Origin: Protonemura montana
Lineage: Eukaryota; Arthropoda; Insecta; Plecoptera; Nemouridae
Length of the DNA stretch: 64,000 bases
Assembly: GCA_947568835.1 (NCBI GenBank)
Contig: OX387603.1
Coordinates: 2,096,201-2,160,200, forward strand
Direction: 5' to 3'
Below the pieces are notes generated by a model. The model searched no databases. It was not told where the DNA came from and saw only the letters and a program-made list of their open reading frames with translations. A program made the position numbers and the translations under genes. Below, piece after piece: positions 10,001 through 58,820 of the stretch. Every line of letters begins with the position of its first letter. Position 1 is the stretch's first letter.

Positions 10001-11247
10001 TTGGTCTCCAGAGCGTTGGAGAAATGCAAGCACTTCAGTCCCTCTTCTGTTAAGACCATCTCGGTGCCTTTAGGGATCCCCTGCAACGGATAATGTCGAC
10101 TGTCGGCATGCTCTATCTCTAGGCTTTAGCAATTCAAGAAAATGCATTAATTTCTCGTGTTTTTGTTGTTAAATGTCAAAAGAAACTTCTTTATTGCCTG
10201 CGATTAGACGACAGAATCAAGTCTGGCAAACAGATGTGTTTTTTTTATAAACACGCATTTTTCAAATAAGTAATTTGATTAGGATGAACTCTTATTTAAA
10301 TTGCAAACGCTTTCAATGCGCGGGGTATTTTATTATTAACATCACTATAACCGTCTCAAAAATTGATGCCCAATCGCGGACTAGAACCCCGATCTCCACC
10401 TGTCGCTGGTGTTGCTCTAACCAATTGAGCTACTTGGACACTCTTTTTGAGACGATTTTAGTGTATTTGATGAATCGTCTCAAAAGGCCAGTGTCCAGAT
10501 AGCTCAATGGTTCAGAGCTACACCCGCGAAAGGTGGAGATCGGAGTTCGAGTTCGCGTTTGGGCATCAATTTTTGAGACTGTTATAGTGTTGTTAATAAT
10601 AAAGTAATTTGATGTCCTGCATTTTTTCCGGCATTGGTATTCGAATTGAAATAACAGGCTCACGAGATGAACGTACCTTCTTGTCGCAATGACCTTTCTT
10701 GAACAGGAAGAATCGGGTGCGAATGTCGTATGGATTTTCAGGGTCTAAATTGTCTGGCCGCAGTTTTTTATCGTACCAGTCGAGAGTGGTTTTCAAGCAT
10801 CCGAGCTCGCCGTAACAATGCTCGCTTGCCACTTGAAATTAGGGCACATAAATCAGGTGAGGCCAAAATTGCACAAGCGTTGCTTCTTGTCGTTGGTATT
10901 CGTGTGGTCTCAGGTTCGACCATTGCAGGCAAAAGCTGGGATAGTTATTGAACAATGGGGGTATATGACCCCCGCCCTAGACTATAATCACCACTCTATT
11001 TATTAAAAACTCCTAAACATTTCACTTCAACCTGGCAGAGATGAGATCAAAGTGAGTGTCGGTTCCCTTTGACCACGAATAAGTTTTGGCACTGAGTGCT
11101 GTTGCTATTGTTCAAAAGTGAAACTAACTGACAGGAGTGGTTAGATCAGCTGAGCTTACCTGGTTTCCCCTTCTTGTCGTTTTCCTGGAAGGAGTATTTC
11201 GCTAAAGAAAGCACTAATAAAATAATATGAGCGGTTTTGGAGGCCAT
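803..11247 (-). CDS. Pancreatic-lipase-family secreted protein, six exons, partial at 3' end, catalytic Ser replaced by Gly
   Basis: Exons in coding order: 11247-11160, 10831-10677, 10080-9952, 3008-2862, 2103-1887, 1059-803; phases agree at every junction and give 331 codons. The product starts with a hydrophobic signal peptide ([16 protein letters not shown]), then shows family landmarks [31 protein letters not shown] and [10 protein letters not shown], and a [10 protein letters not shown] segment before the His region. Animal lipases of this family hydrolyse acylglycerols or phospholipids outside the cell with a Ser-Asp-His triad. Here Asp (about residue 212) and His (about 300, in [10 protein letters not shown]) are kept with normal spacing, but the nucleophile motif is GHGVG (Gly at about 189). 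An inactive, binding or yolk-protein-like role is therefore inferred. The frame after the last exon meets a stop at 764-766 if unspliced; the family normally continues, so more exons probably lie to the left. It could instead be a decaying gene, but no frameshift or internal stop was seen. Confidence 0.85.
1111..1879 (+). repeat. 5S-rRNA-derived 91-bp units, about 8-9 tandem copies, in lipase intron 5
   Basis: Each unit contains GTTAAGCAACACTG and GGTATTGGATGGGTGACC, matching box A and the intermediate element/box C of 5S rRNA genes, joined to a non-5S stretch (CATCATACACATGACC, GGGAGAGAGGTTGGAGGG). No SINE tail is present here. The array occupies nearly the whole intron between lipase exons 6 and 5. 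Confidence 0.9.
1887..2103 (-). CDS. Lipase exon 5: nucleophile elbow (GHGVG) and catalytic Asp
   Basis: Acceptor GGTGCAG, donor G|GTGAGC, phase 0 to 1. It encodes [18 protein letters not shown], where active enzymes have GHSLG, then [10 protein letters not shown] with the catalytic Asp, and [17 protein letters not shown]. The Gly codon is GGT, read directly. The donor is 7-8 bp from the end of the 5S-derived repeat array that fills intron 5. Confidence 0.9.
2410..2672 (+). mobile_element. Short inverted-repeat element family 2, copy in lipase intron 4
   Basis: It starts near GTTTTTAGACTCATGTCTAC and runs through CAACTGGGTTTTCAATGC and CCCAACGTTTCGTAACTTG to GCATCTAAATAAAATAATC. The same sequence recurs at about 23,010, 24,393, 29,718, 49,710 and 51,925 in both orientations, sometimes with facing arms, as in MITE-like elements. 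No coding capacity. Confidence 0.75.
2862..3008 (-). CDS. Lipase exon 4: NVIVVDWG segment
   Basis: 49 codons, phase 0 on both sides, acceptor CCGTACAG, donor [27 protein letters not shown] is a clear pancreatic-lipase signature, followed by the helix [17 protein letters not shown]. Its acceptor lies only about 22 bp from the edge of the 30-bp satellite array in the upstream intron. Confidence 0.9.
3031..7680. repeat. 30-bp satellite array, about 155 copies, in lipase intron 3
   Basis: The unit is GGATGGGGCGTTTCACTACC plus TTCCTCGCTA. Variants (CGTCATACTACCTTCCCCGC, AGGAGGAGGCGTTTCACC, TTTACCGTTAGG) recur at intervals, indicating higher-order duplication. Because 30 is a multiple of 3 and the unit lacks stops, frames stay open on both strands as repeated decapeptides; these are artefacts, not genes. 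Occasional 29-bp units shift the frame. Confidence 0.97.
7681..8107. other. Non-repetitive intron sequence
   Basis: Part of lipase intron 3 between the 30-bp array and the SINE. I see no exon, RNA gene or recognisable repeat; a 70-codon minus-strand frame at 7826-8038 has no family resemblance. Confidence 0.5.
8108..9715 (-). mobile_element. 5S-rRNA-headed SINE with about 14-fold amplified head
   Basis: Reading on the minus strand, the element opens with a degenerate but recognisable 5S rRNA 5' half (AACACCGGTT, GATCACCGAAGTTAAGCAAC near 9,665-9,715), followed by about 14 tandem 91-bp head units (9,675-8,400), then a unique body (CTTCACTCGCCTTGC, CCGTCCTTCGGAAGGGACG, CCGGCACCGGGTTTCCCC) and a 3' end near GTTAATCACCACAAATAG. 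The same body is found at about 18,140, 25,180 and 39,135. A Pol III-transcribed, SINE3-like (5S-derived) retroposon is inferred. Confidence 0.85.
9952..10080 (-). CDS. Lipase exon 3: [11 protein letters not shown] strand and oxyanion-region loop
   Basis: 43 codons, phase 0 on both sides, acceptor TTGCAG, weaker donor [27 protein letters not shown] matches the TKVLIHGFxSSGDxSW segment of pancreatic lipases; the usual HGF is HDF here. The following intron is about 6.9 kb and consists mainly of satellite arrays. Confidence 0.85.
10278..10604. mobile_element. tRNA-carrying inverted-repeat element, head-to-head copy (lipase intron 2)
   Basis: It opens with the family end GATGAACTCTTATTTAAATTG and GCAATGCGCGGGGTATT, then has two facing tRNA-like segments, each flanked by CACTATAACCGTCTCAAAAA-type inverted repeats. 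The minus copy (10,367-10,440) and the plus copy (10,490-10,565) make a palindrome. The A-box-like TAGCTCAATTGGTTAGAGC and a T-arm-like GTTCGAGT are visible. No transposase. Confidence 0.75.
10677..10831 (-). CDS. Lipase exon 2: CYGELGC and RTRFFLF segment
   Basis: It begins after a CAAG acceptor and ends at AAG|GTACGT, phase 0. It encodes the conserved N-terminal CYGELGC motif and the strand [13 protein letters not shown] that opens the alpha/beta-hydrolase fold in pancreatic lipases. Confidence 0.85.
11160..11247 (-). CDS. Lipase exon 1: start codon and signal peptide
   Basis: ATG at 11247-11245 followed by a hydrophobic stretch (IILLVLSLA) typical of a secretion signal, then a charged QENDKKGKP segment. 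It ends in a strong donor (G|GTAAG) in phase 1. An in-frame codon is completed by the first two bases of exon 2 (Val). The start is chosen because the signal peptide follows it directly. Confidence 0.75.
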
Positions 11248-15860: not shown

Positions 15861-18800
15861 CTGTGGGGGTGTGGATGGTGGACAAACGGTTAGTGTTAGA
15901 CGCATGACAAATTATTCACGATCAGTGCTTACTTTGTTCGCCAGGTGTGACGCAATATTAATGTCATGTTAGTTTATTTAATCTAATATTATCTCGCCAG
16001 AAAGTTTGTTAATATTTCGACAAATTGATTATAAATTTATTCTGTCACTTCGCCGCCAACTTTAAGTCCAGGGGAAATTAAATCAATTCATTGCAAATAT
16101 TCTAAGACAATAATAAGTAACGACCTACAGACAGTAGGAGAAACTTAAAGATGGAAAAGCGTTCGAAACGAAAACTCGGTGCAGCTCGGTAAAGCTCAGA
16201 AAATTTGGAAAAGCTCGGGAAAGCTAGGAAAAGCTTGATAAAACTTAAAAAATCTCGGAAAAGCTCGGAAAAGTTAGGTAAAGTTAAGTAAAGCTTGAAG
16301 AAGCTCGAGAAAACTCGGGAAAGTTTGGTAAAGCTCGAAATAGCTCGTGAAAGCTCGGCAAAGCTCGGAAAAGTTCGGTTTTGTTCGGTTTTGTTCGGTT
16401 TTGTTCGGCGCCCGCCAGACTCTACCCTGTGATACTGACCGTCGGATCTCCTGGATCATCTCGAAGAACTGCGCCTTGCTTTTCCTGCGCCGACGCTGCT
16501 CGTGCTCCTTCTGAAACAAGGCACGCGTTCTTGGACTCCGATTGACGCACGCGCAACACATATTCTGATCGGCTAGAAAGACTAGAAGTACGCCGAGGGT
16601 GGACCCGGTGCCCGCATGACCTTGACCCTTTGACAAACTGCAGTGGCGTTTCACAAAGACACTTAAAGCTAACCACGAAGATAAAGAATTTGGCAAAGAA
16701 AGCCAGTTTGTTAGGAAATAGGAAATTGATTAAATTAATTTCCTGTAAAACCTATGGTGATCTTGTGGATTAAAAGCATGTTCCCGCCAAAAATCATCGA
16801 TGGCAGGCCACCACCAAGCCTTGTCCCTTCCAGAGGGTGGCTATCAACACCTTCTTTGAAGTCTCCTGCCTCCGAATCTCACCCTTTTGACGGATTTCTG
16901 GAAGAGGCTGGTGACGTTCCCCTGACGTAGCGTGTGGACCAACTCCCTGGCGGCGTGATGTGGAGATACCAGCTCCACGCAGTTGATGAAGCGATACAGT
17001 TTCTGTGAGAACAAAAACAAAACAACTGACAATCAGCGACACGGCCTCTGTTTCCAACTGACCGTTGACTGGAACCACTGGAACACTATAACCGTCTCAA
17101 AAATTGATGTCCAAACGGGGACTCAAACCCCGATCTCCACCTGTCGCGGGTGTTGCTCTAACCAATTGAGCTAATTGGACACTGGCTTTTTGAGACGATT
17201 CTAGTGTATTTGGTGAGAATGACGGATCTCCAAGGAGTAGAACCAAGAGGCTGTGAATACTCACAGTCACATGCAGTGAAATTCAGATGTTTCTGTGCGC
17301 TAGAGATCCAACTTATAGTTGAACATTTTGTTGAAACTGTTGCCATGACGACTTCCAATCACATGTAGTGAAATTCAGATGTTTCTGTGAGCTAGAGATC
17401 CAACTTATAGTTGAACATTTTGTTGAAACTGTTGCCATGACGACTTCCAATCACATGCAGTGAAATTCAGATGTTTCTGTGAGCTAGAGATCCAACTTAT
17501 AGTTGAACATTTTGTTGAAACTGTTGCCATGACGACTTCCAATCATATGCAGTGAAATTCAGATGTTTCTGTGAGCTAGAGATCCAACTTATAGTTGAAC
17601 ATTTTGTTGAAACTGTTGCCATGACGACTTCCAATCATATGCAGTGAAATTCAGATGTTTCTGTGAGCTAGAGATCCAACTTATAGTTGAACATTTTGTT
17701 GAAACTGTTGCCATGACGACTTCCAATCACATGCAGTGAAATTCAGATGTTTCTGTGAGCTGTGTTATTGTATCTGACATGGTTTTTCAGATACATGTAT
17801 CTATTGAGAGATATATATTGGAGATTGTCGGGTATTGGAAAAAGTCGCCTGACTAGCGAATCTAAAATGTCAAGGCTCTTATTGCTTTTCAACACTGAAT
17901 GTTGAGTCGATCATTTCCTCGCTGTTTCAGCGCGTCTCGGGCAAGATTGCAGATTCACTTATCTAGTGACGTACAGCGGTGGTGAAAACATCGACTCTGT
18001 CTTGAGTGGAAACCGATAGTGAGCTTGATGACAGGTGACCCGAATGTACGGCCAGAGACACGTGACTTGATGTTAAATCAGTCTTGTGTTTTATCTTAGT
18101 TAAAGAAATCTTCAGCATAATTTGTGTTGCTTGATTGATTATTTGTGGTGTTCAACAACGCACTGTTTTGACATCTGGCCATGCGGCACTGGTCTAATGG
18201 CGTCGGTGAATGAGTGGATGATGATGAATCTTACATAGCTTAGAAGTGAGGAGGGGAAACCCGGTGCCGGCTCGTAGCCTACTCCTGTCGAAGTCCAAGG
18301 GGACCACCGGCTTAACGTCCCTTCCGAAGGACGGTACAATGCGAACAACAGGATTCCTCCACAAATCCATGCTGTCGAGAGGTTGATAAGCAAGGCGAGT
18401 GAAGTTGCTGTACTAACTTTAGATTGTATAGACATAAATTTCAATTTCAGAACGAAATGTATGGTTACAAAATGTGAAGCTCTTTCATCAGCATCGAAAG
18501 TTTTAAAACTATTGACGTTTTGATTGTGAAATTATTTGGTGATTTTTGTAAGTATTATCAGAAGAACAAATTTGAGAATACATCTTCAGAACATACCTGA
18601 ATACGCATTTGAAATGTACAGTCTGAATTCTCGCCTAGTTGTTATGACACGTGTTAAAGTGGATACTTATTATTTGGGGTTTAAAATTGAAACGTTTAAG
18701 AATGTATAAGAAACGGAATGTAAACTAGTTCCTAAGCTGTATTAGGATGAAATTTTATTTAAATTGCAAACGCTTGCAATACGCATTTTATTATTAACAA

Positions 18801-21800
18801 CACTATAACAGTCTCAAAAATTGATGCCCAAACGCGGACTCGAACCCCGATCTCCACCTATCGCGGGTGTTGCTCGAACCAATTGAGCTATTTGGACACT
18901 GGATTTTTGAGACGATTTTAGTGTATTTGATGAGAATGACAGTTCCTAAGCTGTTCTCACAAATAAAGTGAATAAATAAGGGAATCGGGCAAGTTTATGT
19001 GATTGGTCTTCACATTGGTTTGAATGACCGCGGCGGGCGCAGATCACGTCGCACCGTCACATCGACCAAACAACGCGACGAGTTGATATTGATCAAACAT
19101 TGAAAATGGCGAGCGAAGTGGAAGAAACGTTAAAAAGAATTCAAGCGCTTAAAGGAGTGATAGGTAAGCAAATAACGGCCGCCGCTCGGAGTCAAATGCA
19201 GACGACGATTTCAAAAGGGCGAACCGTTTAGCCAGGTTTGCCGATATTTTACGACGGCCAATATCTCTTTCAAACGGGTTTTTCACCAACGTTGACGGCG
19301 TGTGGCAGACGTTTTTTACAACCTGACGCTTCGCCTCGAAGCATGTGCGTTCTATGACGTTCTTTTCACTTGTTTAGTAAAACTATTGAACCAAAATCAA
19401 CTTGGTTTGCTTTGTTTTCACTTCTTTTGTCAAAACAAAAGACAACTGTCGCAACTTTCTCCTGTCTTCGCCACTTTTGGGTTTCTAACTTTTTTTGACA
19501 GGTTTTACTTTCTGTTTTTCATGACATGTTTGTCTCGCAAAGTGACAGCTCTTGTCAACAAACGTCTTCACGAGGTAAATACGAGTGGTTAATTGTCTTT
19601 CAGGTACAATGGTCATCAACTCTGAGGGGATACCAATCAAGACCAATATGGACAATACGACCACCGTGCAGTACGCAGGTCAGAACTACATTCCTATAGA
19701 AAGTCAGCCGCAGTGGCACATTTGATAAACATACATTGCAAAGCAATTTAACCGAAAAAAATAATCAATCTACACAAATATTTTTGTTGAATATTGTTGT
19801 CTTTGGATTTTTTTATGTTACCTACTCACTAAAATCGTGTTTTTTGAAATCTGATTTAAATGGACAAAGCATTTTATTATTAGAAACACCGATTGCATTA
19901 GGATTAGCATTCTCTATTTTTATGTCCTGTTCTCTTTACAATGTCCCTGCAATTGTTCTAATTTTACTATCGCACACTTGTAGACTTGACTCCATTGTTG
20001 AACAATACAAAATAATCAATAAATAAAGGTTCTTGATTGATTCCAGGACTGATCGGACAGCTGTGCGAGAAATCCCGCAGTGTTGTTCGAGATCTGGACC
20101 CAACCAACGACCTGACCTTCCTCAGGATTCGCTCGAAGAAGCACGAGATTATGGTCGCACCTGACAAAGACTTTGTTCTCATTGTAATCCAAAACCCAAG
20201 CGACTAAAGTATTAGGATGAAATCTTATTTAAATTGCAAACGCTTGCAATGCGCGGGGTATTTTATTATTAACAACACTATAACCGTCTCAAAAATTGAT
20301 GCCCAACTAAAATACACTAAAATCGTCTCAAAAAGCCAGTGTCCAAGTAGCTCAATTAGTTAGAGAAACACCCGCGACAGGTGGAGATCGGGGTCCAAGT
20401 AGGTCAATTGGTTAGAGCAACACCCACAACAGGTGGAGATCGGGGTTCAAGTAGCTCAATTGGTTAGAGCAACACCCGCGACAGGTGGAGATCGGGGTCC
20501 AAGTAGGTCAATTGGTTAGAGCAACACCCACAACAGGTGGAGATCGGGGTTCAAGTAGCTCAATTGGTTAGAGCAACACCCGCGACAGGTGGAGATCGGG
20601 GTCCAAGTAGCTCAATTGGTTAGAGAAACACCCGCGACAGGTGGAGATCGGGGTCCAAGTAGCTCAATTGGTTAGAGAAACACCCGCGACAGGTGGAGAT
20701 CGGGGTCCATGTAGCTCAATTGGTTAGAGAAACACCCGCGACAGGTGGAGATCGGGGTCCAAGTAGCTCAATTGGTTAGAGAAACACCCGCGACAGGTGG
20801 AGATCGGGGTCCAAGTAGCTCAATTGGTTAGAGAAACACCCGCGACAGGTGGAGATCGGGGTCCAAGTAGCTCAATTGGTTAGAGCAACACCCGTGACAG
20901 GTGGAGATCGGGGTTCGAGTCCGCGTTTGAGCATCAATTTTTGAGACGGTTATAGTGTTGTTAACGACTAAAGTTTCTTCATTCTTATTAATTGTTGGAC
21001 TTGTCCGTGAGTTGAAAGGTTTCTAGAAGTACTTAAAGTAATTGTTGTGTTGTAGCTTTGTCCGCTCTGGCATCGGTTCGGAGAATTTATTTATTGATTT
21101 ATTAATTTATTTATTTATTGATCTTGTTTTCATTTGGTGAAGTTTGGGTTGCCCCGCTCTTCCACTTTACCCCTACAATCTTGCAAGTTAGATATAAAGT
21201 TTAGAATAAGAAAATAAACAAATAATTATAATATGTATATTATAATGTTTACTTAAGATAACCAAAAATAAAACTTACGATTATTGAGGCTTGTACACGA
21301 TATTTGAATATTTGAATAGGTATTAGGTATTATATGCTTATGTATCTTTGATGTATCTGACTTTCCAAATTTTACCAAATATGTAATCAATCGGGAAAGA
21401 AATGAGAAATAAAATACAATATTGTACTTGATCTTTGCTTCTGAGCGGAGATCGAAGCAAGCTTCGGTGAAAGCACTTTAATAAACTCGCTGTGAGCTGC
21501 ATGATTTCACTTCAATTATTGTTAGAATATTTGAAATCTTCCGTTTGACTTGAAATGTGACATTGCTCTTGTAATTATTTTGTGATGCGGGGTAAAAATA
21601 CGTGTTTTTGTTGTTTTGCAAAAATAAACGATTGTCGAAAAACTTGAAACGCAAGAGTTCTTTTGTCGAACGCGCCTTGTGGAAAACCAGGCGTAGATTT
21701 CAGGTCTCTGTGGGGGGAAATTCAGGTCTCTTTGGGGGGAAATTCAGGTCTCTTTGGGGGGAAATTCAGGTCTTTTTAGGGACAAACCGTGAAACATGAC

Positions 21801-24800
21801 ATCGAGCGTAACTCACTTCCTACTCTAACTCTAATTGACTTACAAACAGCGGAATTATTAACTTCTTAATCCCCTGAAAGCGACGCGCAACTTTTGCGAT
21901 AATCCAATTTAATAATTACAAATTGCAATTAAACGTGAATCCGTTGTGACGCAGACGCATGCGTCGAGACGCACGCTCTTGTGCACCGAGGAGGCCGAGA
22001 ACGAACACGATCTTGTTGAACGTAGTCAACGTAGCAGAAAACTTGAAGATCGCGCCCAACTCCACAATCTCAGACTGAAATTTTGTCTTCGATTGTCTCA
22101 TAAATTAGATATAAAAATCATGGACCGTGAGAACGAACGTCACAATTAAAATGCGACATGTAACTAATGAACCAATTAATTATTTCAGAGAATCAATGAT
22201 TACCTGACTGAAAAACATGATCTGTCGACTGCGCCAAATTGTTCCCTTCGGTTGATGGCGCAGAATGGGGAGCGAGTACCGGTAGAAGAGATGTTCAAAG
22301 ATCAAGATCAAGATGCCCATGACCATGCCGAGTCCCAGGAGGAGGAAGACCCCGGCGACTGCAGAGAGACCCAGAGGACGAGGCTGGGACACGTCCATGT
22401 CCATGATATCCACTTTAAAGCAGGGAAGTCCTCCGTACCACTTTTGTTGAAGGATGTCCATGTAGCCGTTTGACGAGTACTTTGCTATCACTGCCGAGAT
22501 GCTGTCCTGTAAGTGAGAGTGGAGCTGGTGTTTAACGACGCATTATTGCTGTGGCTTGGCTTGTGGTGACGGGACGGTGGCAAGAATTTGAATTTTACAA
22601 TATAACGAGTTTTGTGTGTTTTTGTTACAATGCTAGAAATGGGCAAATGCTTTGTGATTTAAGACTCAACTGATTGTTTTAGAACTTGACTGATTGTTTC
22701 TACAAGTAGAATGTATAATATTATATAAATTTAACTTTAGAAACCTGTAACATGTCTGAAAATTCAAAGGAATTCTCATGACAATAAGCAAATAAACAAA
22801 TTAAAGATGATAAAATCGAGAAAGAATCTGAAGAATCTCATTTTTATTATTATGAACACTAAACCCGTATAAAAAAAATAAATTATAAAAATAATAATAA
22901 TAGCATACCCCGCGCATTGCAAGCGTTTGCAATTTAAATATGATTTCATCTTGACTACTTCTTCAACAGGACCAAGGATTGGAAAACACATGAAAAGTCT
23001 CAGCGTGATGGTTTCCAGACTCATGCCTACTTGATCTAAACTTAGCACTAGTTTTAACAAAAACTATTTCAACTGGGTTTTCAATGCTAAGTGAAGAACA
23101 ACTAAATTTCCCAACGTTTCGTAACTTGTACCTGTTACTTTATCAAGGGTAAGAGCAGTCCTGACAATTTTCCGATAACAAAAGAACCACATACAATTAT
23201 AACAATTACCAAGTTCAAGCTTCCTAAATGCATCTAAATAAAATAATCAGGGTCAATAACTAAAAAACTAATGAACCCAAAAACCCTTGATAAAGTAACA
23301 GGTACAAGTTACAAAACGTTGGGAAATTTAGTTGTTCTTTACTTAGCATTCAAAACCCAGTTGAAATAGTTTTTGTTGAATATATAAAAAGTCTCTTCCA
23401 AAGAACGGCTTTGACAAGAAAAATGCAGATATTTCAAGAACAGAATCTGGTTCACTGCATGGCAGTCACATAACATGAAAGACTTCAAAACTTCAAGTAT
23501 TCTTTGGGTGAAACCAAGAGTTAAAGTTATTAAATACATCAGCTCGTGAAAAGGTTGAGTCACTTTCAACTTTGCTGTTTATATACAAGAACTATTTGTC
23601 CAGTTTGGCTCGAATAACTCGCGTACCTTGAGAGGAAACCCTTTTGTCATGCCGACAGCGTAGGTGTCTTCGTTGATAGCCTCACCGATCTTCTGCAGCT
23701 TGCACCCGTGGTCCGTGGCCCGGTAGTAATCCAAGATGGGCGTGTCGGCGATCAGAATGTCCAGTGAACCGTTCTTCAAATGTTGGATACCTGCAAACAT
23801 CGGCGCTATCAGCTAGGCAGTCACATCCATGGCATTGTCATTTTATCAATTGTCCAATTTAACAATTTGGTTATTGTTTCGGCGTAGCATTCTTTATGTT
23901 CAATTACTAGTTAATTACTTTTGGTCCCTTGAGCCGGAGCTATACAATGACCTAACTTTTCCTTCCTCACGTTCAGTAGCACTCAGTCTCAGTATTATTC
24001 AACCTCTGTTTGTAATTACAAATATACAGTTTAAAGGTAAGTTCTGTCTCTGTGTGATTCGCCTTCAATCCACGCACCAGAAACATAAAATAAGTGTTTT
24101 GTTCAATAGGTTAATAGTCAAATTTGGTCAGTTTACCAATTTGCTATTGTCATGAACCAGTCATTAGCACGGTACCACGCGTAGGTTGGGTCTTGCGTTC
24201 GATCCTGGTGGACGGCTATCCTGGTTGAGAATTTTTCGCTGTTTTTTTTTCTAAATCTTCTCAAGGATCAGGAAAGTTACTCTAACAAAAGGTTTACCTA
24301 TTACCTTGCCTACCACTTCTGTATCGATTCCCAACCCGGCCAAAGAACTTGGGATAGAAAACTGGTTACTTTCTCAAGTTCCTAAAAGTATGATTGTTTT
24401 TAGACTCAAGTCTACTTGATGTAACCTTAGCACTAGTTTTGATAAAAACTATTTCAACTGTGTTTTTAATGCTAAGTGAAGAAATTTCCCTAAAAGTAGT
24501 TCTTTGATATTTTGCCCGACGTCTCTCGGCCCCGATCGCGCTATGTTTTGCCATCACCATTCCTGTTTTCGTGTGAAAAGTTAGACAAGAGATTTGCCAA
24601 CGAAGCTTGCACTAAAACTGCCATCCCTAGACAATGAACAGCGACATATTTACCATCTGCAAACTTTTCAAACTGGCACACGTCCCGGAAAGAAGGCCAA
24701 GTGGATTACATTTGAATATCGCCAGACCAACAGATAGGTATTATTGATGTGTTTCCTGACTCGGCTGGCTGGTAATCCGCAGCCTCGGGTGCTGTTAGAA

Positions 24801-27800
24801 ACACCCTACTTCCCACGTTCTCAGCGAGATAAGTCCTCGGATTGAAGGTCCCTGGCTTGCCGCGTTTGTTGTCTTACTATTTACATGACGTTCTCTTATG
24901 CAAACCAAGGTGAAGGCTGTGTCCGCTGAGTCAGGTATTGAATGGGTGACCATCATACACATGACCAGTTCTGTTCGGGAGAGAGGTTGGAGGGATGAAA
25001 GTTAAGCAACACTGCGCTGGGTCAGGTATTGGATGGGTGACCATCATACACATGACCAGTTCTGTTCGGGAGAGAGGTTGGAGGGATGAATGTTAAGCAA
25101 CACTGCGCTGAGTCAGGTATTGAATGGGTGACCATCATACACATGACCAGTTCTGTTCGGGAGAGAGGTTGGAGGGATGAAAGTTAGTACAGCAACTTCA
25201 CTCGCCTTGCTTATCAACCTCTCGACAGCATGGATTTGTGGAGGAATCCTGTTGTTCGCGTTGTACCGTCCTTCGGAAGGGACGTAAAGCCGATGGTCCC
25301 CTTGGTGCTCTTCGACAGGAGTAGGCTACGTGCCGGCACCGGGTTTCCCCTCCTCCCTTCTAGGCTAGATTGGGTCCATCATCATTCTCATCATCATCCA
25401 CTCATTCACCGACGCCATTAGACCAGTGCTGCAGGGCCAGTTGTCAAAACAGTGCATCGCTAAACACCACAAATAATAATAATAATAATAATAGTAAAGG
25501 CTGTGCGAATGGACATTGAGGTTCGGGGACATACCGTCGGCAACGTCCCGCATCGAGTAGCGTTGCATCTGCTCCCATAGCAACTGGTTCGCCCGATGGA
25601 TGTAGTCGTCAGCGGCGGAAGCTCTGGGTGCTCCCACGCGTTGACTTAGAAGCTGAAGACAGGCACGATTGTACAGTGGTTAGGTTATAGGTATAGGTTA
25701 TTGCGAGCGGCTTGCCAGCTGGGAGATGGATTAGTATTTACTTAATGTCAGAGCATGTTTGGCTGACAAGACTGTAGCTAGAGTAGTTTGTATCAAAGCT
25801 AAGCTGCATTGACAAGGAAAGATAAGCGTTTTCACTCATTTTATTAGAATTTATTGCTGATGTGCACTAAAAATGCGACGCAGCGGTTAACTTTGCTGAT
25901 TGCCTCTATTTCTTTTTTTACCTTCCACACGAAATAGTGCAAATACCTAGGATGCTCTCGAGGGTGTCGGTGGTGGTAGGGTTTGGGGGTGGAGTAGGGG
26001 GCGGGGGGATGCAGTGGTCTGGTTCATTGGTCCACATTTGATGAAATCAATAACCGAACAAGTGGCAATTGGCCGCATTACGGTTTAGTTTTGTTGATGC
26101 TTTGAGCTTGGTCGTTGCCGTGGCATGATTTCACAGTACCGCTCTTCGTGGTCAATCGGTCACCGTCACGGATTATGAGGTTTTATATCATTTATATTGT
26201 ACGCGATCACCTGCAAGCATTATGCACACGACAGGATGTCGTTTTGTTACTTTAACACCTCGCCAGAACCGACCGCGGCTTTATTTTATCGTGTTTAACT
26301 TTAACTAGCTTGTTGTCAGTGGTAATAAAACTGCTTTCCCGTTCCCATTCCTATTCAAGTGATTCCCCATTTCAGGTTTTGATGTATATTATCTCCAAAA
26401 TCGTAAATTTTAGCAAATTAAATATAAGAGATCAGATCAGAGGACAGGTTAGTCGATATTTTTTAAAAAATACAGAAGTATTGAGTTTCCCGTCATTTGC
26501 TTTCAAGTGATTGGCGACGTGTTATGAGTTCAGAAAGCTACTCAAGCTTAAATTAAGTTGTAGCGGACAACGAACTGAGCCAGCCAACCAGTAACACCTT
26601 CGTGTGTTTAGTTCATTACACTTGAATTAACAAAGCAAAGGCTTGCCCTTTATCCGTCAAACACATCTTGTAAATACAATTTGCCGACAAAAGACGGGCG
26701 ATGACGTTTATTTTTGAAAGAAACTAAGCCACGTGGAAACTTCATCGTCTGTCAGAAGATCTTGTTCGACAGAACAAATAAAGTCGGTGATATTTCACTG
26801 CAAGGCTAGCGGATGTTCTGGTGAACCTCAATACTTGAAAAGTTGTTTCAATCCCACGAAGTGGTCCGAGCATCTCTCACATCAAACTCGTGTGATTCAT
26901 GGAATGGAGAAAAAACTCCTCCACTTGTTTCAATATTTACACGCTTCAACGCAGATCGTAGCTACCATGTGTACACTTGCAAGGAATACTTGAATTACTT
27001 CATCTAATTAAACGGGTATTATGTGTCTTTGATAAACTGTATGAAATCACATCAATGCTCTGGGCCAACATGCATAATGTAAAGTGTGTGAGTGGAAGAA
27101 CATATTCTTCATTGTTGGCGGTATTTGATAAACGTGCCGAGTTACAGAAGTTTTGACAGCACATAGGACATGTCTTATGGGGGGACAAGTTGCGCCAAGA
27201 AACTTTGCAAGATTAATCAAAGACGGAGCAAGTATGAATCAAGACGAAGACATGAAAGTTTACTCACGCTGCGGTCGTGGTAGTTGACGTTGTTGTGAAA
27301 GAACAGTCCGGCAATCAACGCCGCAATGTTGGCAGTGTAACTAGCAACAAAAATAACTGAAAATCCGCCCCACACGTTGATTAAAAACTTGTTCGGCCAG
27401 CTTTTGGGCGCTTTGAAAGCGACCAAATGCCCGCAAAGCAGACCCCACATGACCCACAACGCAGACGCGATACTAAAGTTTTTCGAACGCTGACGACCCC
27501 ACGGATTCAAACCAAACGGACTCAACCACTCGTAGATTGCGACGGCCATCGCGGTGATGTTCAAACTGGTGAAGATCGCGATCCACAACTCGGGACTGAA
27601 CGGCAAGAGAAACGCGAGCAACGGCACCTCGCTCTTCTGCGTCGGCGCCGCCAGGAAAGAGACGCCGCTGAAGAAGTACGGTGCCGAGAAGTCGATGACC
27701 TCCGAGCGGGCACTACTGACGCTCAACGCGGCGAACGACATGTGAGCGGCGCCCGACGCCAGATCCCCGACGATGCCGTTCCACTTTGTCTTCGTCGACG

Positions 27801-30800: not shown

Positions 30801-33800
30801 TATGTATATCCAACCCATCTTGTTTATATAAAACCAAACAAATAAAATAACTGTCTCATTGCAAGCATTGCATTGCAAGCATTGCATTGCAAGCATTGCA
30901 AGCATTGCATTGCAAGCATTGCAAGCATTGCATTGCAAGCATTGCAAGCATTGCATTGCAAGCATTGCAAGCATTGCATTGCAAGCATTGCAAGCATTGC
31001 ATTGCAAGCATTGCATTGCAAGCATTGCATTGCAAGCATTGCATTGCATTGCATTGCAAGCATTGCATTGCAAGCATTGCATTGCAAGCATTGCATTGCA
31101 AGCATTGCAAGCGTTGCATTGCATTGCAAGCATTGCATTGCAAGCATTGCATTGCAAGCATTGCATTGCAAGCATTGCATTGCAAGCATTGCAAGCATTG
31201 CATTGCAAGCATTGCATTGCAAGCATTGCATTGCAAGCATTGCAAGCATTGCATTGCAAGCATTGCAAGCGTTGCATTGCATTGCAAGCATTGCATTGCA
31301 AGCATTGCATTGCATTGCAATTTAAACAAGGTTACATCTTAATACAGGAGGGAAGTTAGCTGACGACACATCCAGCTCCTAACTCCAAGTTAAGTTGTTA
31401 AACAATGACAGGGACATGACGGGCAAGTTTGAAACTTAAATTGTGTCTTGGAGTTAATAATTTCTTGTTTTGTAGCCAGTCACGCAAAGTAAGCAATGAC
31501 TAAACTTAATTGCAGACGAGAATATTTACAGTGACAGCTCGACTTTAAGCGTACAATGATTCCCAATGGTTAGCTCAGTAACTAGAATGGAAGGTATTTA
31601 GGATGAATCTGATTTAAATTGCAAACGCTTGCAATGCGCGGGGTATTTTATTATTAGCAACACTATAACCGTCTCAAAAATTGATGCCTAAACGCGGAAA
31701 ATTGTCTCAAAAAGACAGTGTCCAGATAGCTCAATGGTTCAGAGCAACACCCGCGAAAGGTGGAGATCGGGGTTCGAGTCGGCGTTTCGGCATCAATTTT
31801 TTGAGACGGTTTTAGTGTTGATAATAATAGAATGGAAGATATTTAGGATTATTTATTTATAAAGAGGTTAGTAGAGGAATTGGCTGAGAAGAGAAATGAT
31901 CAAAGTGAAGAATATTGTTCTCATTATTTCTTTGCAAAGGAGATTGGTTCTTCGGTTTGGTGGAAGACTCAAGCTCTACTGGTGAAGAGGCTCACTCACA
32001 AGGACTGCGTGCGTATAGGTTTTAAACCTCGGCAAATCTTGCATCGGTTTTAAAGTTGGAACTTTGGACAACAGTCTAGCCGTGGTGGCGTTTAAAGAAA
32101 ACCTCCAGTTCAACATGCAAGGACTGTTCAGTAGTTGGTTGAGTGAAAAATTAACTGGTAAGATAAAACCCTTCGGTAAAACAGTGACGCAGTTGAACAA
32201 AGAAACCATGATATTGTTTAAGTTCAGTTATTTGAATAAATTTTAGCGCTTCTCTGTGTTAATCGCCTTCAGATCAAGAGATTCTACGGCTTAAAGTTAC
32301 CACTGCATTTTGTTGAATTTCACACAGAGGAGAAATTTGTCACTATGCATTATACACTTCAATGAAACTGTCAGGAAAAACTAAGTTGGTTTTCTTATAT
32401 GAAAATCTTTGGGTTCACTAAAGTAAATTTAAAGTTATTCAGGCTAATTAACTAATTCAACTAATTAACAATGTATTACATTTCTTGCTTCAGTTCTGGG
32501 TTCTATTCGATGCGTCGAATGGGAAACCCAAACTAAAACATTAGAGAAGTTGGGACTGTTTTGAGCCGGGCAAAAGTCCACACACACGAGCGACGGCGAG
32601 CGACGGCGAGCGACGGCGAGCGGCCGCTCATTGGAAATACATTGGAATTTTATTTCCTGAGGTTTCTTTAATTTATAGATCGTGATTGATCACTGAAATG
32701 AAAATCCTCTGCTGCAAGATCTGATTGAGATACGATATCCTGTCTTTCTTTTGCCATACAAGCGCCGAGTAGCTTCATTATGACCGATCTGGATTTGAAT
32801 TTGTGGTAAATCCTGCTAAGAATCTATCTTCAGAAAAGACGGTTGAATACCGGCTGTAAGAAGTTGAGCAAACAACTAAGATGAGCTTTAAAGCCCGTCT
32901 ATCGGCATAAGACTCAGCAGACTGAGATCCGGCCATCAGCGAGCAAGATCCACTAAAGAGCTCATCGGTTCAAATCCAGGACAAGCCAGACGACGTGGCT
33001 TCCAACAATTCCATCTCGGTTCTCCGCACGCTTTCCTAGACGACCGCAGAAAACACGCACAAAAAACACACGCACGCAAGCATCATCCTTACTTGCGAAT
33101 CGCAACTTTTCATGTCGAAACTTTCAAAGAGAATATCCGTTCTGCGGCCATCAATATCTTCGGGTAGACCGAGTTTTTACGAATGAATTGGAGGTTTTTT
33201 GGCGCCAGAGAGGGGGGTGGGGGGGGGAGAGGGGTAAGACATTAACCGTAAGTCCAATCAATCAACGCTGGCATTTCACCCCTCAGAACTCCCCCCCCCC
33301 CTTTCACCAAAACTACCCCTTCCGATCGAACTTTCAAGGTGTCTAAATCGGCATTTTTTTCTCTCCACGCAAAGGAGTGGACACTCGCCGTCGCCTCTGT
33401 GCTGGACATTCCGTGACAGGGCGCTTGTTTCGCTCCACGCAAAGGAGCGGACACTCGCCGTCGCCTCTGTGCTGGACATTCCGTGACAGGGCGCTTGTTT
33501 CGCTCCACGCAAAGGAGCGGACACTCGCCGTCGCCTCTGTGCTGGACATTCCGTGACAGGGCGCTTGTTTCGCTCCACGCAAAGGAGTGGACACTCGCCG
33601 TCGCCTCTGTGCTGGACATTCCGTGACAGGGCGCTTGTTTCGCTCCACGCAAAGGAGCGGACACTCGCCGTCGCCTCTGTGCTGGACATTCCGTGACAGG
33701 GCGCTTGTTTCACTCCACGCAAAGGAGCGGACACTCGCCGTCGTCTCTGTGCTGGACATTCCGTGACAGGGCGCTTGTTTCGCTCCACGCAAAGGAGCGG

Positions 33801-52268: not shown

Positions 52269-52924
52269 GACAAATATGTAGTTTTTACTACAGATTTGAA
52301 TAAAAGTGAATATCTTATGATGTATAAATGTATTACGGTTCAGTCTGGCAATATTTTATTTCAAATCGAAAAGAAAACTCCCATCGGTCGAGGTTTTCAG
52401 CAAAAAATTAATTTTGTTCTATGTGCCTGATCATTTGCTTCTTGATTTTATACCTCATTTGAATGAACATTTCCCATTGTTTTGAGTATTTTCATAATTA
52501 TCTTCTTTCAAAGTTATAAAATATAAATCAGCTATGCTTCAAGATGGCACCAAGCTCAACCTTGGTACCATCTTGAATAAGAGATGTGTTTAAAACTGCA
52601 GACTTGGAGTAAGAAACCGAGACAACCTGGTCTCAAGTCTCCGAGCCAGACAAGCATCTGTGTTGCTAAAAGTTCCCGCGTTAATTTCATCCCCAGAGTC
52701 CAGAGAGACTCAATCGACCTCGAACAGGAAGTTTGCCAAAAAAACACTCGGGCTTTATTTTCAAATCCCCAGCCTTGTTTATTTCCCCGCGTTTACTGCA
52801 TTGCTGGCAAATACAGTAGACTTTGTTCAAGAAACAGATGCCAACCAGATGAACGAATACATTTTCAAAAGTTAACCGGTTGTTTAAAGTTATCTCCTTG
52901 GTGACAAATAATTAGATTATTAAA

Positions 52925-52965
52925 TGACGTCTTATTTCAATTACAAACGCTTGAAATTGCTAAAC
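52925..52965 (+). mobile_element. Left end of a tRNA-carrying-type element at the satellite boundary
   Basis: GACGTCTTATTTCAATTACA and AACGCTTGAAATTGC match the family end ATGAAATCTTATTTAAATTG/CAAACGCTTGCAAT with changes. The TTTGACTCA satellite starts directly after it. Confidence 0.55.
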
Positions 52966-52966
52966 A

Positions 52967-54074
52967 CATTTGACTCATTTGTCTCATTTGACTCATATGT
53001 CTCATTTGACTCATTTGTCTCATTTGACTCATTTGACTCATTTGACTCATTTGTCTCATTTGTCTCATTTGACTCATTTGACTCATTTGACTCATTTGTC
53101 TCATTTGACTCATTTGTCTCATTTGTCTCATTTGACTCATTTGACTCATTTGTCTCATTTGACTCATTTGACTCATTTGACTCATTTGACTCATTTGTCT
53201 CATTTGACTCATTTGACTCATTTGACTCATTTGACTCATTTGTCTCATTTGACTCATTTGACTCATTTGACTCATTTGACTCATTTGACTCATTTGACTC
53301 ATTTGTCTCATTTGACTCATTTGACTCATTTGACTCATTTGACTCATTTGTCTCATTTGACTCAATTGACTCATTTGACTCATTTGTCTCATTTGACTCA
53401 TTTGACTCATTTGACTCATTTGACTCATTTGTCTCATTTGTCTCATTTGACTCATAAGACTCATTTGACTCATAAGACTAATTTGTCTCATAAGACTAAT
53501 TTGTCTCATTTGACTCATTTGTCTCATTTGACTCATTTGACTCATTTGACTCATTTGACTCATTTGACTCATTTGACTCATTTGACTCATTTGTCTCATT
53601 TGACTCATTTGACACATTCGACTCATTTGACTCATTTGACTCATTTGTCTCATTTGTCTCATTTGTCTCATTTGACTCATTTGTCTCATTTGACTCATTT
53701 GTCTCATTTGTCTCATTTGTCTCATTTGACTCATTTGTCTCATTTGACTCATTTGACTCATTTGTCTCATTTGACTCATTTGACTCATTTGTCTCATTTG
53801 ACTCATTTGACTCATTTGTCTCATTTGACTCATTTGACTCATTTGACTCATTTGACTCATTTGTCTCATTTGACTCATTTGACTCATTTGTCTCATTTGA
53901 CTCATTTGACTCATTTGACTCATTTGACTCATTTGACTCATTTGTCTCATTTGACACTTTCGACTCATTTGACTCATTTGTCTCATTGGACTCATTTGAC
54001 ACATTCGACTCATTTGACTCATTTGACTCATTTGTCTCATTTGACTCATTTGACTCATTTGACTCATTTGACTC
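52967..54074. repeat. 9-bp satellite TTTGACTCA / TTTGTCTCA, block A (about 123 units)
   Basis: Units alternate irregularly between TTTGACTCA and TTTGTCTCA with rare TTTGACACA. All frames stay open, so long frames here are artefacts. The majority unit contains the heptamer TGACTCA. Confidence 0.97.
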
Positions 54075-57000
54075 GACGAAGGGGAAGACGGGAAGACGAA
54101 GGGAAAGACGGGGAGATGAAGGGGAAGACGGGAAGACGAAGGGGAAGACGGGAAGACGAAGGGGAAGACGGGAAGACGAAGGGGAAGACGGGAAGACGAA
54201 GGGGAAGACGGGAAGACGAAAAGGAAGACGGGAAGACGAAGGGGAAGACGGGAAGACGAAGGGGAAGACGGGAAGACGAAGGGGAAAACAGGAAGACGAA
54301 GGGGAAGACGGGAAGACGAAGGGGAAGACGGGAAGACGAAGGGGAAGACGGGAAGACGAAGGGGAAGACGGGAAGACGAAGGGGAAGACGGGAAGACGAA
54401 GGGGAAGACGAAAAGACAAGGGGAAGACGGGAAGACGAAGGGGAAGACGGGAAGACGAAGGGGAAGACGATGGGGAAGACGGTAAGACGAAGGGGAAGAC
54501 GGGAAGACGAAGGGGAAGACTGGAAGACGAAGAAGAAGACGGGAAGACGAAGGGAAAGACGGGAAGACGAAGGTGAAGACGGGAAGACGAAGGGGAAGCG
54601 GGAAGACGAAGGGGAAGACGGGAAGACGAAGGAGAAGACGGGAAGACGAAGGAGAAGACGGGAAGACGAAGGGGAAGACGGGAATATGAAGGGGAAGACG
54701 AGAAGACGAAGGGGAAGACGGGAAGACGAAGGGGTAGACGGGAAGACGAAGGGGAAGACGGGAAGACGAAGGGGAAGACGGGAAGACGAAGGGGAAGAAG
54801 GGAAGACGAAGGGGAAGACGGAAAGACGAAGGGGAAGAAGGGAAGACGAAGAGGAAGACAGGAAGACGAAGGGGAAGACGTGAAGACGAAGAGGAAGACA
54901 GGAAGACGAAGGGGAAGACGTGAAGACGAAGGGGAAGACGGGAAGACGAAGGGGAAGACGGAAAGACGAAGGGGAAGACGGGAAGACGAAGGGGAAGACG
55001 GGAAGACGAAGGGGAAGACGGGGAGACGAAGGGGAAGACGGGAAGACAAAGGGGAAGACGGGAAGACAAAGGCGAAGACGAGAAGACGAAGGGGAAGACG
55101 GGAAGACGAAGGGGAAGACGGGAAGACGAAGGGGAAGACGGGGCTGACGAAGGGGAAGACGGGAAGACGAAGGGGAAGACGGGAAGACGGGATGCCGGCA
55201 AGACGGGAATACGGGAAGACGGAAAGACGGGAAGACGGGAAGACGGGAAGACGGGAAGACCAGAAGACCAGAAGGGGAAGGGGAAGGGGAAGGGGAAGGG
55301 GAAGGGGTAGGGGAAGACGGGAAGACGAAGGGGAAGACGGGAAGACGAAGGGGAAGACGGGAAGAAGAAGGGGAAGACGGGAAGACGAAGAGGAAGACGG
55401 GAAGACAAAGAGGAAGGCGGAAAGACGAAGGGGAAGACGGGAAGACGAAGGGGAAGACGGGAAGACGGGAAGACGGGAAGACGGGAAGACGGGAAGACGG
55501 GAAGACGGGAAGACCAGAAGACGAAGGGGAAGGGGAAGGCAAAGGGGAAGGGGAAGGGGAAGCAGAAGACGAAGGGGAATACGGGAAGACGAAGGAGAAG
55601 ACGGGAAGACGAAGGTGAAGACGGTAAGACGAAAAAGAAGACGGGAAGACGAAGGGGAAGACGGGAAGACGAAGAAGAAGACGGGAAGACGAAGGGGAAG
55701 ACGGGAAGACGAAGGGGAAGACAGAAAGACGAAGAGGAAGACGGGAAGACGAAGGGGAAGACGGGAAGACGAAGGGGAAGCCGGGAAGACGAAGGGGAAG
55801 ACGGGATGACGAAGGGGAAGACGGGAAGACGAAGGGGAAGACGGGAAGACGAAGGGGAAGACGGGAAGACGAAGGGGAAGATGGGAAGACGGGAAGACGG
55901 GAAGCCGGGAAGACGGGAAGACGGGAAGACGAAAAGACGGGAAGACGGGAAGACGGGAAGACGGGAAGACGGGAAGACGGGAAGACGGGAAGACCAGAAG
56001 ACCAGAAGGGGAAGGGGAAGGGGAAGGGGATGGGGAAGGGGAAGGGGAAGGGGAAAAGAAAGGGGAAGGGGAATGGGAAGGGGAAGACGAAGGGGAAGGG
56101 GAAGGAGAAGGTGAAGGGGAAGACGGGAGGACGGGAAGACGGGAAGACAAAGGGGAAGACGGGAAGACGAAGGGGAAGACGGGAAGACGAAGGGGAAGAC
56201 GAAGGGGAAGACGGGAAGGGGAAGGGGAAGACGAAAAGACGAAGGGGAAGACGGGAAGACGAAGGGGAAGACAGGAAGACGAAGGGGAAGACGGGAAGAC
56301 GATGGGGAAGACGGTAAGACGAAGGGGAAGACGGGAAGACGAAGGGGAAGACGGGAAGACGAAGGAGAAGACGGGAAGACGAAGGGAAAGACGGGAAGAC
56401 GAAGGGGAAGACGGGAAGACGAAAGGGGAGGCGGGAAGACGAAGGGGAAGACGGGAAGACGAAGGAGAAGACGGGAAGACGAAGGGAAAGACGGGAAGAC
56501 GAAGGGGAAGACGGGAAGACGAAGGGGAAGACGGGAAGACGAAGGGGAAGACGGGAAGACGAAGGGGAAGACGGGAAGACGAAGGGGAAGAAGGGAAGAC
56601 GAAGGGGAAGACGGGAAGACGAAGGGGAAGACGGGAAGACGAAGGGGAAGACGGGAAGACGAAGGGGAAGAAGGGAAGACGAAGGGGAAGAAGGGAAGAT
56701 GAAGAGGAAGACAGGAAGACGAAGGGGAAGACGTGAAGACGAAGGGGAAGACGGGAAGACGAAGGGGAAGACGGGAAGACGAAGGGGAAGACGGGAAGAC
56801 GAAGGGGAAGACGGGAAGACGAAGGGGAAGACGGGAAGACGAAGGGGAAGACGGGAAGACGGGAAGACCAGAAGACCAGTATGGGAAGGGGAAGTGGAAG
56901 GGGAAGACGGGAAGACGGGAAGACGGGAAGCCGGGAAGACGGGAATACGGGAAGACGGAAAGACGGAAAGACGGGAAGACGGGAAGCCGGGAAGACGGGA

Positions 57001-57358
57001 AGACGGGAAGACGGGAAGACGGGAAGACGGGAAGACCAGAAGACCAGAAGGGGAAGGGGAAGGGGAAGACGGGAAGACGAAGGGGAAGACGGGAAGACGA
57101 AGGGTAAGACGGGAAGACGAAGGGGAAGACGGGAAGACGGGAAGACGGGAAGACGGGAAGACGGGAAGACGGGAAGACGGGAAGACGGGAAGACGGGAAG
57201 ACGGTAAGGCTGGAAGACGGGAAGACGGGAAGACCAGAAGACGAATGGGAAGGGGAAGGCGAAGGGGAAGGGGAAGGGTAAGGGGAAGCAGAAGACGAAG
57301 GGGAAGGGGAAGACGAAGGTGAAGGGAAAGACAGGAAGACGAAGGGGAAGACGGGAAG
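54075..57358. repeat. 20-bp purine-rich satellite (GGGGAAGACGGGAAGACGAA), 3.3 kb, with subrepeats
   Basis: The main unit is 20 bp. Five or so inserts (about 55,190-55,310; 55,450-55,560; 55,880-56,110; 56,860-57,060; 57,120-57,310) follow a common order: GGGAAGAC runs, then CAGAAGACCAGAAG, then GGGGAA runs, indicating higher-order duplication. The plus strand is nearly free of T. The 1,592- and 884-codon minus-strand frames here are repeat artefacts. Confidence 0.96.
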
Positions 57359-58346
57359 TCTCATTTGACTCATTTGACTCATGTGACTCATTTGTCTCAT
57401 TTGTCTCATTTGACTCATTTGTCTCATTTGACTCATTTGTCTCATTTGACTCATTTGACTCATTTGTCTCATTTGACTCATTTGACTCATTTGTCTCATT
57501 TGACTCATTTGTCTCATTTGACTCATTTGTCTCATTTGACTCATTTGTCTCATTTGACTCATTTGACTCATTTGTCTCATTTGACTCATTTGTCTCATTT
57601 GTCTCATTTGACTCATGTGACTCATTTGTCTCATTTGACTCATTTGACTCATTTGACTCATTTGTCTCATTTGACTCATTTGACTCATTTGACTCATTTG
57701 ACTCATTTGTTTCATTTAACTCATTTGACTCATTTGACTCATTTGTTTCATTTGACTCATTTGACTCATTTGACTCATTTGTTTCATTTGACTCATTTGA
57801 CTCATTTGTCTCATTTGACTCATATGACTCATTTGACTCATTTGTTTCATTTGACTCATTTGTCTCATTTGACTCATTTGACTCATTTGTCTCATTTGTC
57901 TCATTTGACTCATTTGTCTCATTTGACTCATTTGACTCATTTGACTCATTTGACTCATTTGACTCATTTGACTCATTTGTCTCATTTGACTCATTTGTCT
58001 CATTTGACTCATTTGACTCATTTGACTCATTTGACTCATTTGACTCATTTGACTCATTTGACTCATTTGACTCATTTGTCTCATTTGACTCATTTGACTC
58101 ATTTGACTCATTTGACTCATTTGACTCATTTGACTCATTTGTCTCATTTGTCTCATTTGACTCATTTGTCTCATTTGACTCATTTGACTCATTTGACTCA
58201 TTTGACTCATTTGACTCATTTGACTCATTTGACTCATTTGACTCATTTGTCTCATTTGACTCATTTGTCTCATTTGACTCATTTGACTCATTTGTCTCAT
58301 TTGACTCATTTGTCTCATTTGTCTCATTTGACTCATTTGACTCATT
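57359..58346. repeat. 9-bp satellite TTTGACTCA / TTTGTCTCA, block C (about 110 units)
   Basis: Same unit and orientation as block A, with a TTTGTTTCA variant added. The purine-rich block thus interrupts one satellite. A short relic (CATTTGCCTCATTTGACTCA) occurs at about 58,666-58,690. Confidence 0.97.
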
Positions 58347-58714: not shown

Positions 58715-58775
58715 ATAGGGCATTGATCCCCGTTTGGCTATCAATTTTTGAGACGTTTATAGTGTTCTTAAAAAT
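58715..58775 (+). mobile_element. Right end of a tRNA-carrying-type element
   Basis: GATCCCCGTTTGGCTATCAA then TTTTTGAGACGTTTATAGTG matches the right end of the family (GGGCATCAATTTTTGAGACGG). With the left end at 52,925 it brackets the 5.4-kb satellite. Confidence 0.65.
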
Positions 58776-58820
58776 AAAATAAAAATTGACTATTCTCTAT
58801 TTCCTCTGTTTTCTTCCTAG

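What the first reader, a model, noticed from the sequence alone, without database searches (positions are those of the whole stretch)
20211..20970. One tRNA-carrying element appears to seed several satellites
The 52-bp array (20.3-20.9 kb) lies inside this element; the ATTGCAAGC array (30.9-31.3 kb) ends in its inverted terminal sequence and repeats its CATTGCAAGC core; the 5.4-kb composite (53.0-58.35 kb) is bracketed by its left end (52,925) and right end (58,715-58,775). Three unrelated satellites at one element family suggest its termini or hairpins promote tandem amplification.
Basis: partly seen in the sequence, partly recalled or inferred. Interest (0 to 1): 0.75.

Follow-up and report, generated by a model that had tools for sequence, protein, structure and literature searches.

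The report
tRNA-bearing retroposon with internal satellite
A small mobile DNA element that carries a tRNA-like sequence and exists in thousands of copies in this animal genome often holds a stack of repeats of part of that tRNA, mostly near chromosome ends, which is a clear case of a mobile element turning into satellite DNA.

Summary
In detail: all three arrays touch copies of one family. The family is abundant: 4,951 hairpin-arm and 4,906 TIR-arm matches at up to 2 mismatches, controls 0. Of 50 copies chosen for an intact hairpin end, 29 carry direct repeats of 9-22 bp (re-paired flanks 1.0%) and 36 end in the arm with the A-rich tail. That fits a tRNA-bearing foldback retroposon, SINE-like but not a standard SINE.

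The 52-bp array is a recurrent family trait: 14,124 junctions and 959 array 3' ends. Arrays keep one frame inside the element, from the tRNA-like start to the B box.

The other two arrays look local: the ATTGCAAGC pattern matches only here, and the CATTTGACT composite's junctions are unique. In 47 other loci, other arrays were not significantly closer to element ends than chance. Arrays follow chromosome zone: 12 of 20 loci within 3 Mb of a contig start, 2 of 27 beyond. So 'termini seed satellites' is only partly supported. Closest known: SINE-derived satellites of reptiles (PMC10702118).

The parts
20211..20964 (+). Element copy that carries the 52-bp array: reversed hairpin arm and TIR arm, then forward tRNA-like array and 3' arm
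20201..20210 (.). Left direct repeat (target-site duplication) CGACTAAAGT
20965..20974 (.). Right direct repeat CGACTAAAGT
20341..20912 (+). 11 units of 52 bp: tRNA-like sequence from its 5' start to just before the B box
20861..20933 (+). Last unit continued into a complete tRNA-like sequence (ARAGORN tRNA-Ser, Rfam tRNA 36.2 bits)
10278..10606 (+). Element copy without array, tRNA-like parts in both orientations, 12-bp direct repeat AAGTAATTTGAT
17082..17270 (-). Element fragment (tRNA-like reversed) abutting a 92-bp array at 17267-17761
18741..18940 (-). Element copy with 14-bp direct repeat AGTTCCTAAGCTGT and a different 3' end
22842..22950 (-). Short element copy without tRNA-like part
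30857..31319 (+). ATTGCAAGC array inside the hairpin arm; a 30-base pattern from it matches nowhere else in the assembly at up to 1 mismatch
31307..31343 (+). Hairpin arm with the element's outer end, in register with the array
31598..31833 (+). Element copy with a single tRNA-like sequence, 22-bp direct repeat with one mismatch
52924..52957 (+). 34-bp decayed fragment of the hairpin end left of the composite
52967..58346 (.). Composite array: CATTTGACT units, GACGAAGGGGAAGACGGGAA units, CATTTGACT units
58727..58781 (+). Decayed 3' arm (end of the tRNA-like part, TIR, tail) right of the composite

Best explanation
The element is a non-autonomous foldback retroposon with a tRNA-like part. In its insertion orientation typical copies begin with a 48-bp hairpin arm and an inverted copy of the 3' arm, have a variable middle with none, one or more tRNA-like parts, and end with the 3' arm and TTAATAATAAAA. 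It inserted with target-site duplications of 9-22 bp, so most likely by target-primed reverse transcription with a LINE's enzymes (mechanism inferred, LINE not identified). The tRNA-like part starts with GTCCAAGT and has GTTCGAGT, its B box, 52 bp later. Slippage or unequal exchange between these two similar 8-mers duplicated the 52 bp between them (inferred from the junction). Once two units existed, unequal exchange lengthened arrays to dozens of units inside the element, and copies with an array could be mobilised again (inferred). Long arrays gather in the outer few Mb of the contigs. The ATTGCAAGC array is a separate small expansion of the palindromic hairpin arm. The 5.4-kb composite is a separate array that replaced or entered the middle of an old copy (inferred, weakest part).
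For: Insertion type: of 63 different copies, 50 were kept for an intact hairpin end (position 37 or beyond, a selection rule; 31 of 50 reach 47-48). 29 of 50 have direct repeats of 9-22 bp, 19 of the 29 being 12-14 bp (re-paired flanks 1.0%; three of the 29 share one repeat and are one duplicated locus), and 36 of 50 end in the TIR arm. Array frame: of 14 array pieces, 10 have a true left boundary, 8 of them at CAGT|GTCC; 11 have a true right boundary, all of which run into the B box, 8 at exactly GTTCGAGTCC (pieces ending at a run break or locus end were set aside by hand). Abundance: 14,124 junctions, 4,224 tRNA-like 3' ends, 2,949 starts, 959 array 3' ends, controls 0. Units differ by 2.78 bases within and 3.39 between nine pieces of 4 or more units: a shared unit with some local homogenisation. 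Zone: on the five contigs of known length, 28 of the 29 exact array 3' ends listed lie within 4 Mb of a contig end, where 0.37 of their length lies. Head-to-tail 331-bp dimers also occur, 531 junctions.
Against: 21 of 50 copies gave no direct repeat at that threshold. The 3' arm holds TTTTT, a Pol III stop signal (recalled knowledge), before the tail, and the tRNA-like part is not at the 5' end, so ordinary SINE transcription does not explain the whole element. No LINE partner was looked for. The 8-mers match at only 6 of 8 places, so the duplication step is inferred. Junctions read TCCAAGT in most contexts but TTCAAGT in some (70 and 12 with the full AGCT continuation). One founder duplication spread by retroposition and repeated independent duplication are not separated. 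Only the first 100 places of each search are listed.
Confidence: 0.7

Rival explanations
1. One reading: the element's termini or hairpins actively promote tandem amplification of whatever DNA lies at them, so unrelated satellites arise at its copies.
For: 4 of 9 window fragments within 10 bp of an array against 0.09 expected; a TTGCAATTG x 5.9 run overlapping the hairpin arm at L062:1187-1240; 2 and 3 of 50 sample fragments within 50 and 100 bp of a foreign array, above the null means of 0.58 and 1.10 but not significant.
Against: 0 of 50 fragments in the other loci within 10 bp of a non-internal array; the recurrent array amplifies the inner tRNA-like part; the window is in an array-rich zone (32% of its bases).
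Confidence: 0.15
2. Chromosome zone alone: subterminal regions accumulate both elements and tandem arrays, and contacts are coincidence or insertion into old arrays.
For: Arrays in 12 of 20 sample loci at 0-3 Mb of C1 and 2 of 27 at 3-14 Mb; of 71 exact tRNA-like starts listed on C1, 46 lie beyond 30 Mb, 13 in the first 3 Mb and 12 in the 27 Mb between.
Against: The 52-bp array is made of element sequence and lies between fixed element boundaries; the ATTGCAAGC array repeats the arm that it abuts; the within-window null already uses local array density.
Confidence: 0.1
3. The element is a TIR or Helitron-type DNA transposon with internal repeats, like the oyster Helentrons or Tetris.
For: Inverted arms of 36-38 nt, 92-97% complementary, in two window copies; a hairpin followed by CTAA-like letters at one end, seen by eye in several copies; head-to-tail dimers.
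Against: Direct repeats of variable length, 9-22 bp; the two ends are not symmetrical, the hairpin arm being present at one end only in typical copies; an A-rich 3' tail.
Confidence: 0.05

Closest known systems
SINE-derived satellites (sSats) of scaled reptiles, Vassetzky et al. 2023, PMC10702118 (abstract, passages and Discussion read)
   Same: Tandem repeats of part of a tRNA-related SINE; longer terminal unit that continues to the SINE's end; wide range of unit numbers; preference for subtelomeric regions; partial homogenisation.
Tetris foldback transposon of Drosophila virilis, PMC4079207 (abstract and one Discussion section read)
   Same: Foldback structure with internal tandem repeats that vary in number; amplification said to be favoured by chromosome environment.
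   Different: Tetris is described as a DNA transposon with repeats inside its TIRs and kb-size arrays beyond it. Here variable-length direct repeats point to retroposition, and the arrays whose ends could be read stay inside the element.
Cg_HINE Helentron elements of the Pacific oyster, PMC7492417 (abstract read)
   Same: Non-autonomous elements that carry central tandem repeats through the genome.
   Different: Helitron superfamily; no tRNA-like part is mentioned in the abstract. The direct repeats found here do not fit Helitron insertion (recalled: no target-site duplication).
PolIII/TAN of newt, OAX of Xenopus, Rana/polIII, Hy/polIII (as described in PMC10702118 passages)
   Same: Tandem repeats with tRNA-related sequence (for Hy/polIII that paper doubts it).
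   Different: By that paper's account, units of about 200-360 nt where a length is given, and no confirmed SINE relative.

Membership tests
tRNA-derived SINE | Variable-length target-site duplications | tested here: met
   29 of 50, 9-22 bp, null 1.0%
tRNA-derived SINE | tRNA-like head at the 5' end with A and B boxes | tested here: not met
   A tRNA-like part is found by ARAGORN and Rfam and both boxes can be read in it (box motifs recalled), but in typical copies the 5' end is the hairpin arm and the tRNA-like part is internal, in either orientation
tRNA-derived SINE | Simple A-rich tail at the 3' end | tested here: met
   36 of 50 end in the TIR arm, 34 of them at positions 39-44, TTAATAATAAAA
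tRNA-derived SINE | 3' part shared with a partner LINE | not tested
   No LINE search was made
SINE-derived satellite (sSat) | Tandem units derived from part of an interspersed retroposon, terminal unit continuing to the element's end | tested here: met
   11 of 11 true right boundaries run into the B box; the 3' arm follows, broken off early in one, L086
SINE-derived satellite (sSat) | Preference for subtelomeric regions | tested here: met
   28 of 29 exact array 3' ends on contigs of known length within 4 Mb of a contig end; that contig ends are chromosome ends was not shown, and only listed places were used
TIR DNA transposon or MITE | Symmetrical terminal inverted repeats at both outer ends | tested here: not met
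   The hairpin arm lies outside the inverted repeat at one end only in typical copies
TIR DNA transposon or MITE | Target-site duplication of fixed length | tested here: not met
   Lengths 9 to 22
Helitron or Helentron | No target-site duplication | tested here: not met
Helitron or Helentron | 3' hairpin close to a CTRR end | tested here: inconclusive
   Hairpin plus CTAA-like end seen by eye in several copies; not counted
Hammerhead retrozyme | Self-cleaving hammerhead motif in the unit | tested here: not met
   No ribozyme family among the matches at E up to 2 in L007, L010, L013, L062

The most novel reading that the evidence does not exclude
This is a distinct kind of retroposon, an inverted-dimer tRNA element whose RNA would fold back on itself. 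In this genome Pol III gene parts turn into satellites by one rule: a segment lying between two short similar words, one inside a Pol III control region (recalled), is duplicated and then expanded. The tRNA part (52 bp between GTCCAAGT and GTTCGAGT) and a 5S rRNA part (91 bp between GAAGTTA and GAAAGTTA) would both follow it, in subterminal zones.
Probability: 0.3. Interest if true: 0.6.

Novelty: new variant of a known kind. Interest (0 to 1): 0.42.

Why it matters
It gives many stages of satellite birth from one mobile element in one assembly: single units, pairs, short and long arrays, nearly all in one frame and between the same boundaries in the copies read. That makes the first duplication step and the effect of chromosome position testable. 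It also extends SINE-derived satellites, described for reptiles, to a very different, palindromic retroposon. Five paper searches listed no paper whose title or abstract opening describes such a palindromic tRNA element with tandem arrays; most listed papers were not opened.

Tried and rejected
Rejected: MITE/TIR transposon and Helitron (variable-length direct repeats, asymmetrical ends). Hammerhead retrozyme (no ribozyme hit). Long 331-bp satellite: dimer junctions exist (531), but no two of the 100 listed lie within 1 kb of each other. One composite insertion with intact duplication at 52.9-58.8 kb: flanks not similar beyond chance. Led nowhere: 100 random 10-kb regions drawn could not be fetched. 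Flanks of the two other CATTTGACT loci could not be read, so whether they lie in element copies is open; a decayed fragment there would escape. Paper search found nothing.

Weaknesses: the 47-locus sample (from 60 loci L009-L068 after removing overlaps) is all from contig C1, 0.26 to 13.95 Mb, and from copies with exact anchors. One search used positions and rounded contig lengths typed from listings; for C1, C3, C11, C12 and C14 the length was only the largest coordinate seen, for C11, C12 and C14 an array hit itself, so its 66 of 67 is biased towards ends. One search repeats the count on the five contigs of known length (28 of 29), and I rest on that. Base totals by zone take every locus as 3,032 bases, which is slightly too long for some. 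TRF threshold for the array tests was score 100. L002-L008 were picked by a query holding the tRNA-like unit and are biased toward arrays; they were left out but are. L069-L098 were picked by the array junction and used only.

Full report
What is there. The window comes from a 258.5-Mb assembly, 2.10 Mb into contig C2, and holds genes with ionotropic-glutamate-receptor-type domains, so I take it for animal DNA. Nine fragments of one repeat family lie in it. Described with the tRNA-like part forward, the family has modules A5p (163 bp), tRNA-like (70), TIR arm (44) and hairpin arm (48), with 6 bp more to a 331-bp head-to-tail period seen in dimers. The hairpin pattern occurs 4,951 times and the TIR pattern 4,906 times at up to 2 mismatches, reversed controls 0.

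How it inserts. Typical copies start with the hairpin arm reversed and the TIR arm reversed, have a variable middle, and end with the forward TIR arm and TTAATAATAAAA. Of 63 different copies, 50 have the hairpin end. Of these, 29 have a direct repeat of score 9 or more at both ends, lengths 9-22 bp with 19 at 12-14, against 1.0% for flanks re-paired between copies. Three of the 29 (L002, L003, L008) share one repeat and flank, so they are copies of one locus by later duplication. 21 of 50 show none at that score. Variable-length duplications with an A-rich 3' end fit target-primed reverse transcription. They do not fit a TIR transposon or a Helitron. The tRNA-like part gives four ARAGORN calls and four Rfam matches of 29-47 bits in the window, but it is internal and TTTTT follows it, so it is not a textbook SINE head.

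The 52-bp array. Its unit is the tRNA-like sequence from GTCCAAGT to the base before GTTCGAGT. In 14 array pieces from the held loci and window, 8 of 10 true left boundaries read CAGT|GTCC and all 11 true right boundaries run into the B box, with the 3' arm after it (broken off early in L086). Unit numbers seen run from 2 to at least 33. Genome-wide there are 14,124 internal junctions (about 0.73 Mb at 52 bp each, my arithmetic), 4,224 tRNA-like 3' ends and 2,949 starts at up to 2 mismatches, and 959 array 3' ends at up to 3 mismatches of a 72-base pattern. The last is likely a low count, since units differ. In the sample anchored on the hairpin and TIR patterns 3 of 47 loci have such an array.

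The other two arrays. A 30-base pattern from it matches at this locus only (21 of 21 hits). Another copy, L062, has a different short run overlapping the same arm. CATTTGACT units appear at three loci among the 100 places listed of 550. The window's two junctions are unique at up to 3 mismatches. Nothing seen shows that the composite grew from element sequence.

Test of the interpretation. Within the window contacts exceed chance (4 of 9 within 10 bp, mean 0.09), but the window suggested the test. In 47 other loci, 0, 2 and 3 of 50 fragments lie within 10, 50 and 100 bp of a foreign array, against 0.13, 0.58 and 1.10 by chance (P 1.0, 0.11, 0.09): no significant excess, though the last two lean that way. 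Arrays inside the element are 3 of 22, expected share 0.092, P 0.33. Zone matters more: 12 of 20 loci at 0-3 Mb of C1 have an array (7,163 of about 60,640 bases) and 2 of 27 at 3-14 Mb (370 of about 81,864), Fisher P 2e-4. The three array-bearing element copies of the sample are all in the first group, but that alone is not significant (P 0.07). Of 29 exact array 3' ends listed on contigs of known length, 28 lie within 4 Mb of a contig end, where 0.37 of the length lies.

Mechanism. Shown: the frame, the boundaries, the similar 8-mers, the direct repeats, the zone. Inferred: slippage or unequal exchange as first step, growth by unequal exchange, re-mobilisation of array-bearing copies, LINE enzymes. 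A parallel fits the first step: the 91-bp satellite repeats the last 73 bases of a 5S-like sequence plus 18 bp. In 2 of the 6 arrays held (8395-9722 and L013) the first 45 bases stand once, at one end; the other 4 lack them. In the two places read, its unit too lies between short similar words, GAAGTTA and GAAAGTTA.

Known relatives. SINE-derived satellites in reptiles show the same logic, including the terminal unit and the subtelomeric bias (PMC10702118, Discussion read). Tetris and oyster Helentrons show it for DNA transposons. What I did not find there is the palindromic retroposon and the sub-tRNA unit of 52 bp.

Verdict.

Noticed in passing
window 1116-1880, 8395-9674, 24924-25186, 38950-39137; L013:448-726; L017:97-287: A dispersed 91-bp satellite made of the last 73 bases of a 5S rRNA-like sequence plus 18 bp; a 5S-like first part stands at one end of two of these six arrays (8395-9722 and L013). 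The geometry resembles the tRNA-like array.
   Followed up: partly
contig C1 of G000: Exact tRNA-like starts listed on C1 crowd towards its ends: per Mb, 4.3 at 0-3, 0.44 at 3-30 and 15.8 beyond 30 Mb (contig length is a lower bound).
   Followed up: partly
window 33358-41118: Arrays in mirror order: 70-bp units, a 15-bp repeat pair and 102-bp units on one side, the same units reverse-complemented on the other. It looks like a large inverted repeat.
   Followed up: no
window 1-498 and 48019-48762: The same 41-bp unit in two separate arrays about 47.5 kb apart.
   Followed up: no
window 17267-17761: A 92-bp array starts at the broken end of an element copy; its origin is unknown.
   Followed up: no
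L062:1187-1240: TTGCAATTG x 5.9 overlapping the hairpin arm of another copy, perhaps an independent small expansion of the same arm.
   Followed up: no
L007:339-421: mir-219-like match, 36 bits, below the family's gathering score.
   Followed up: no
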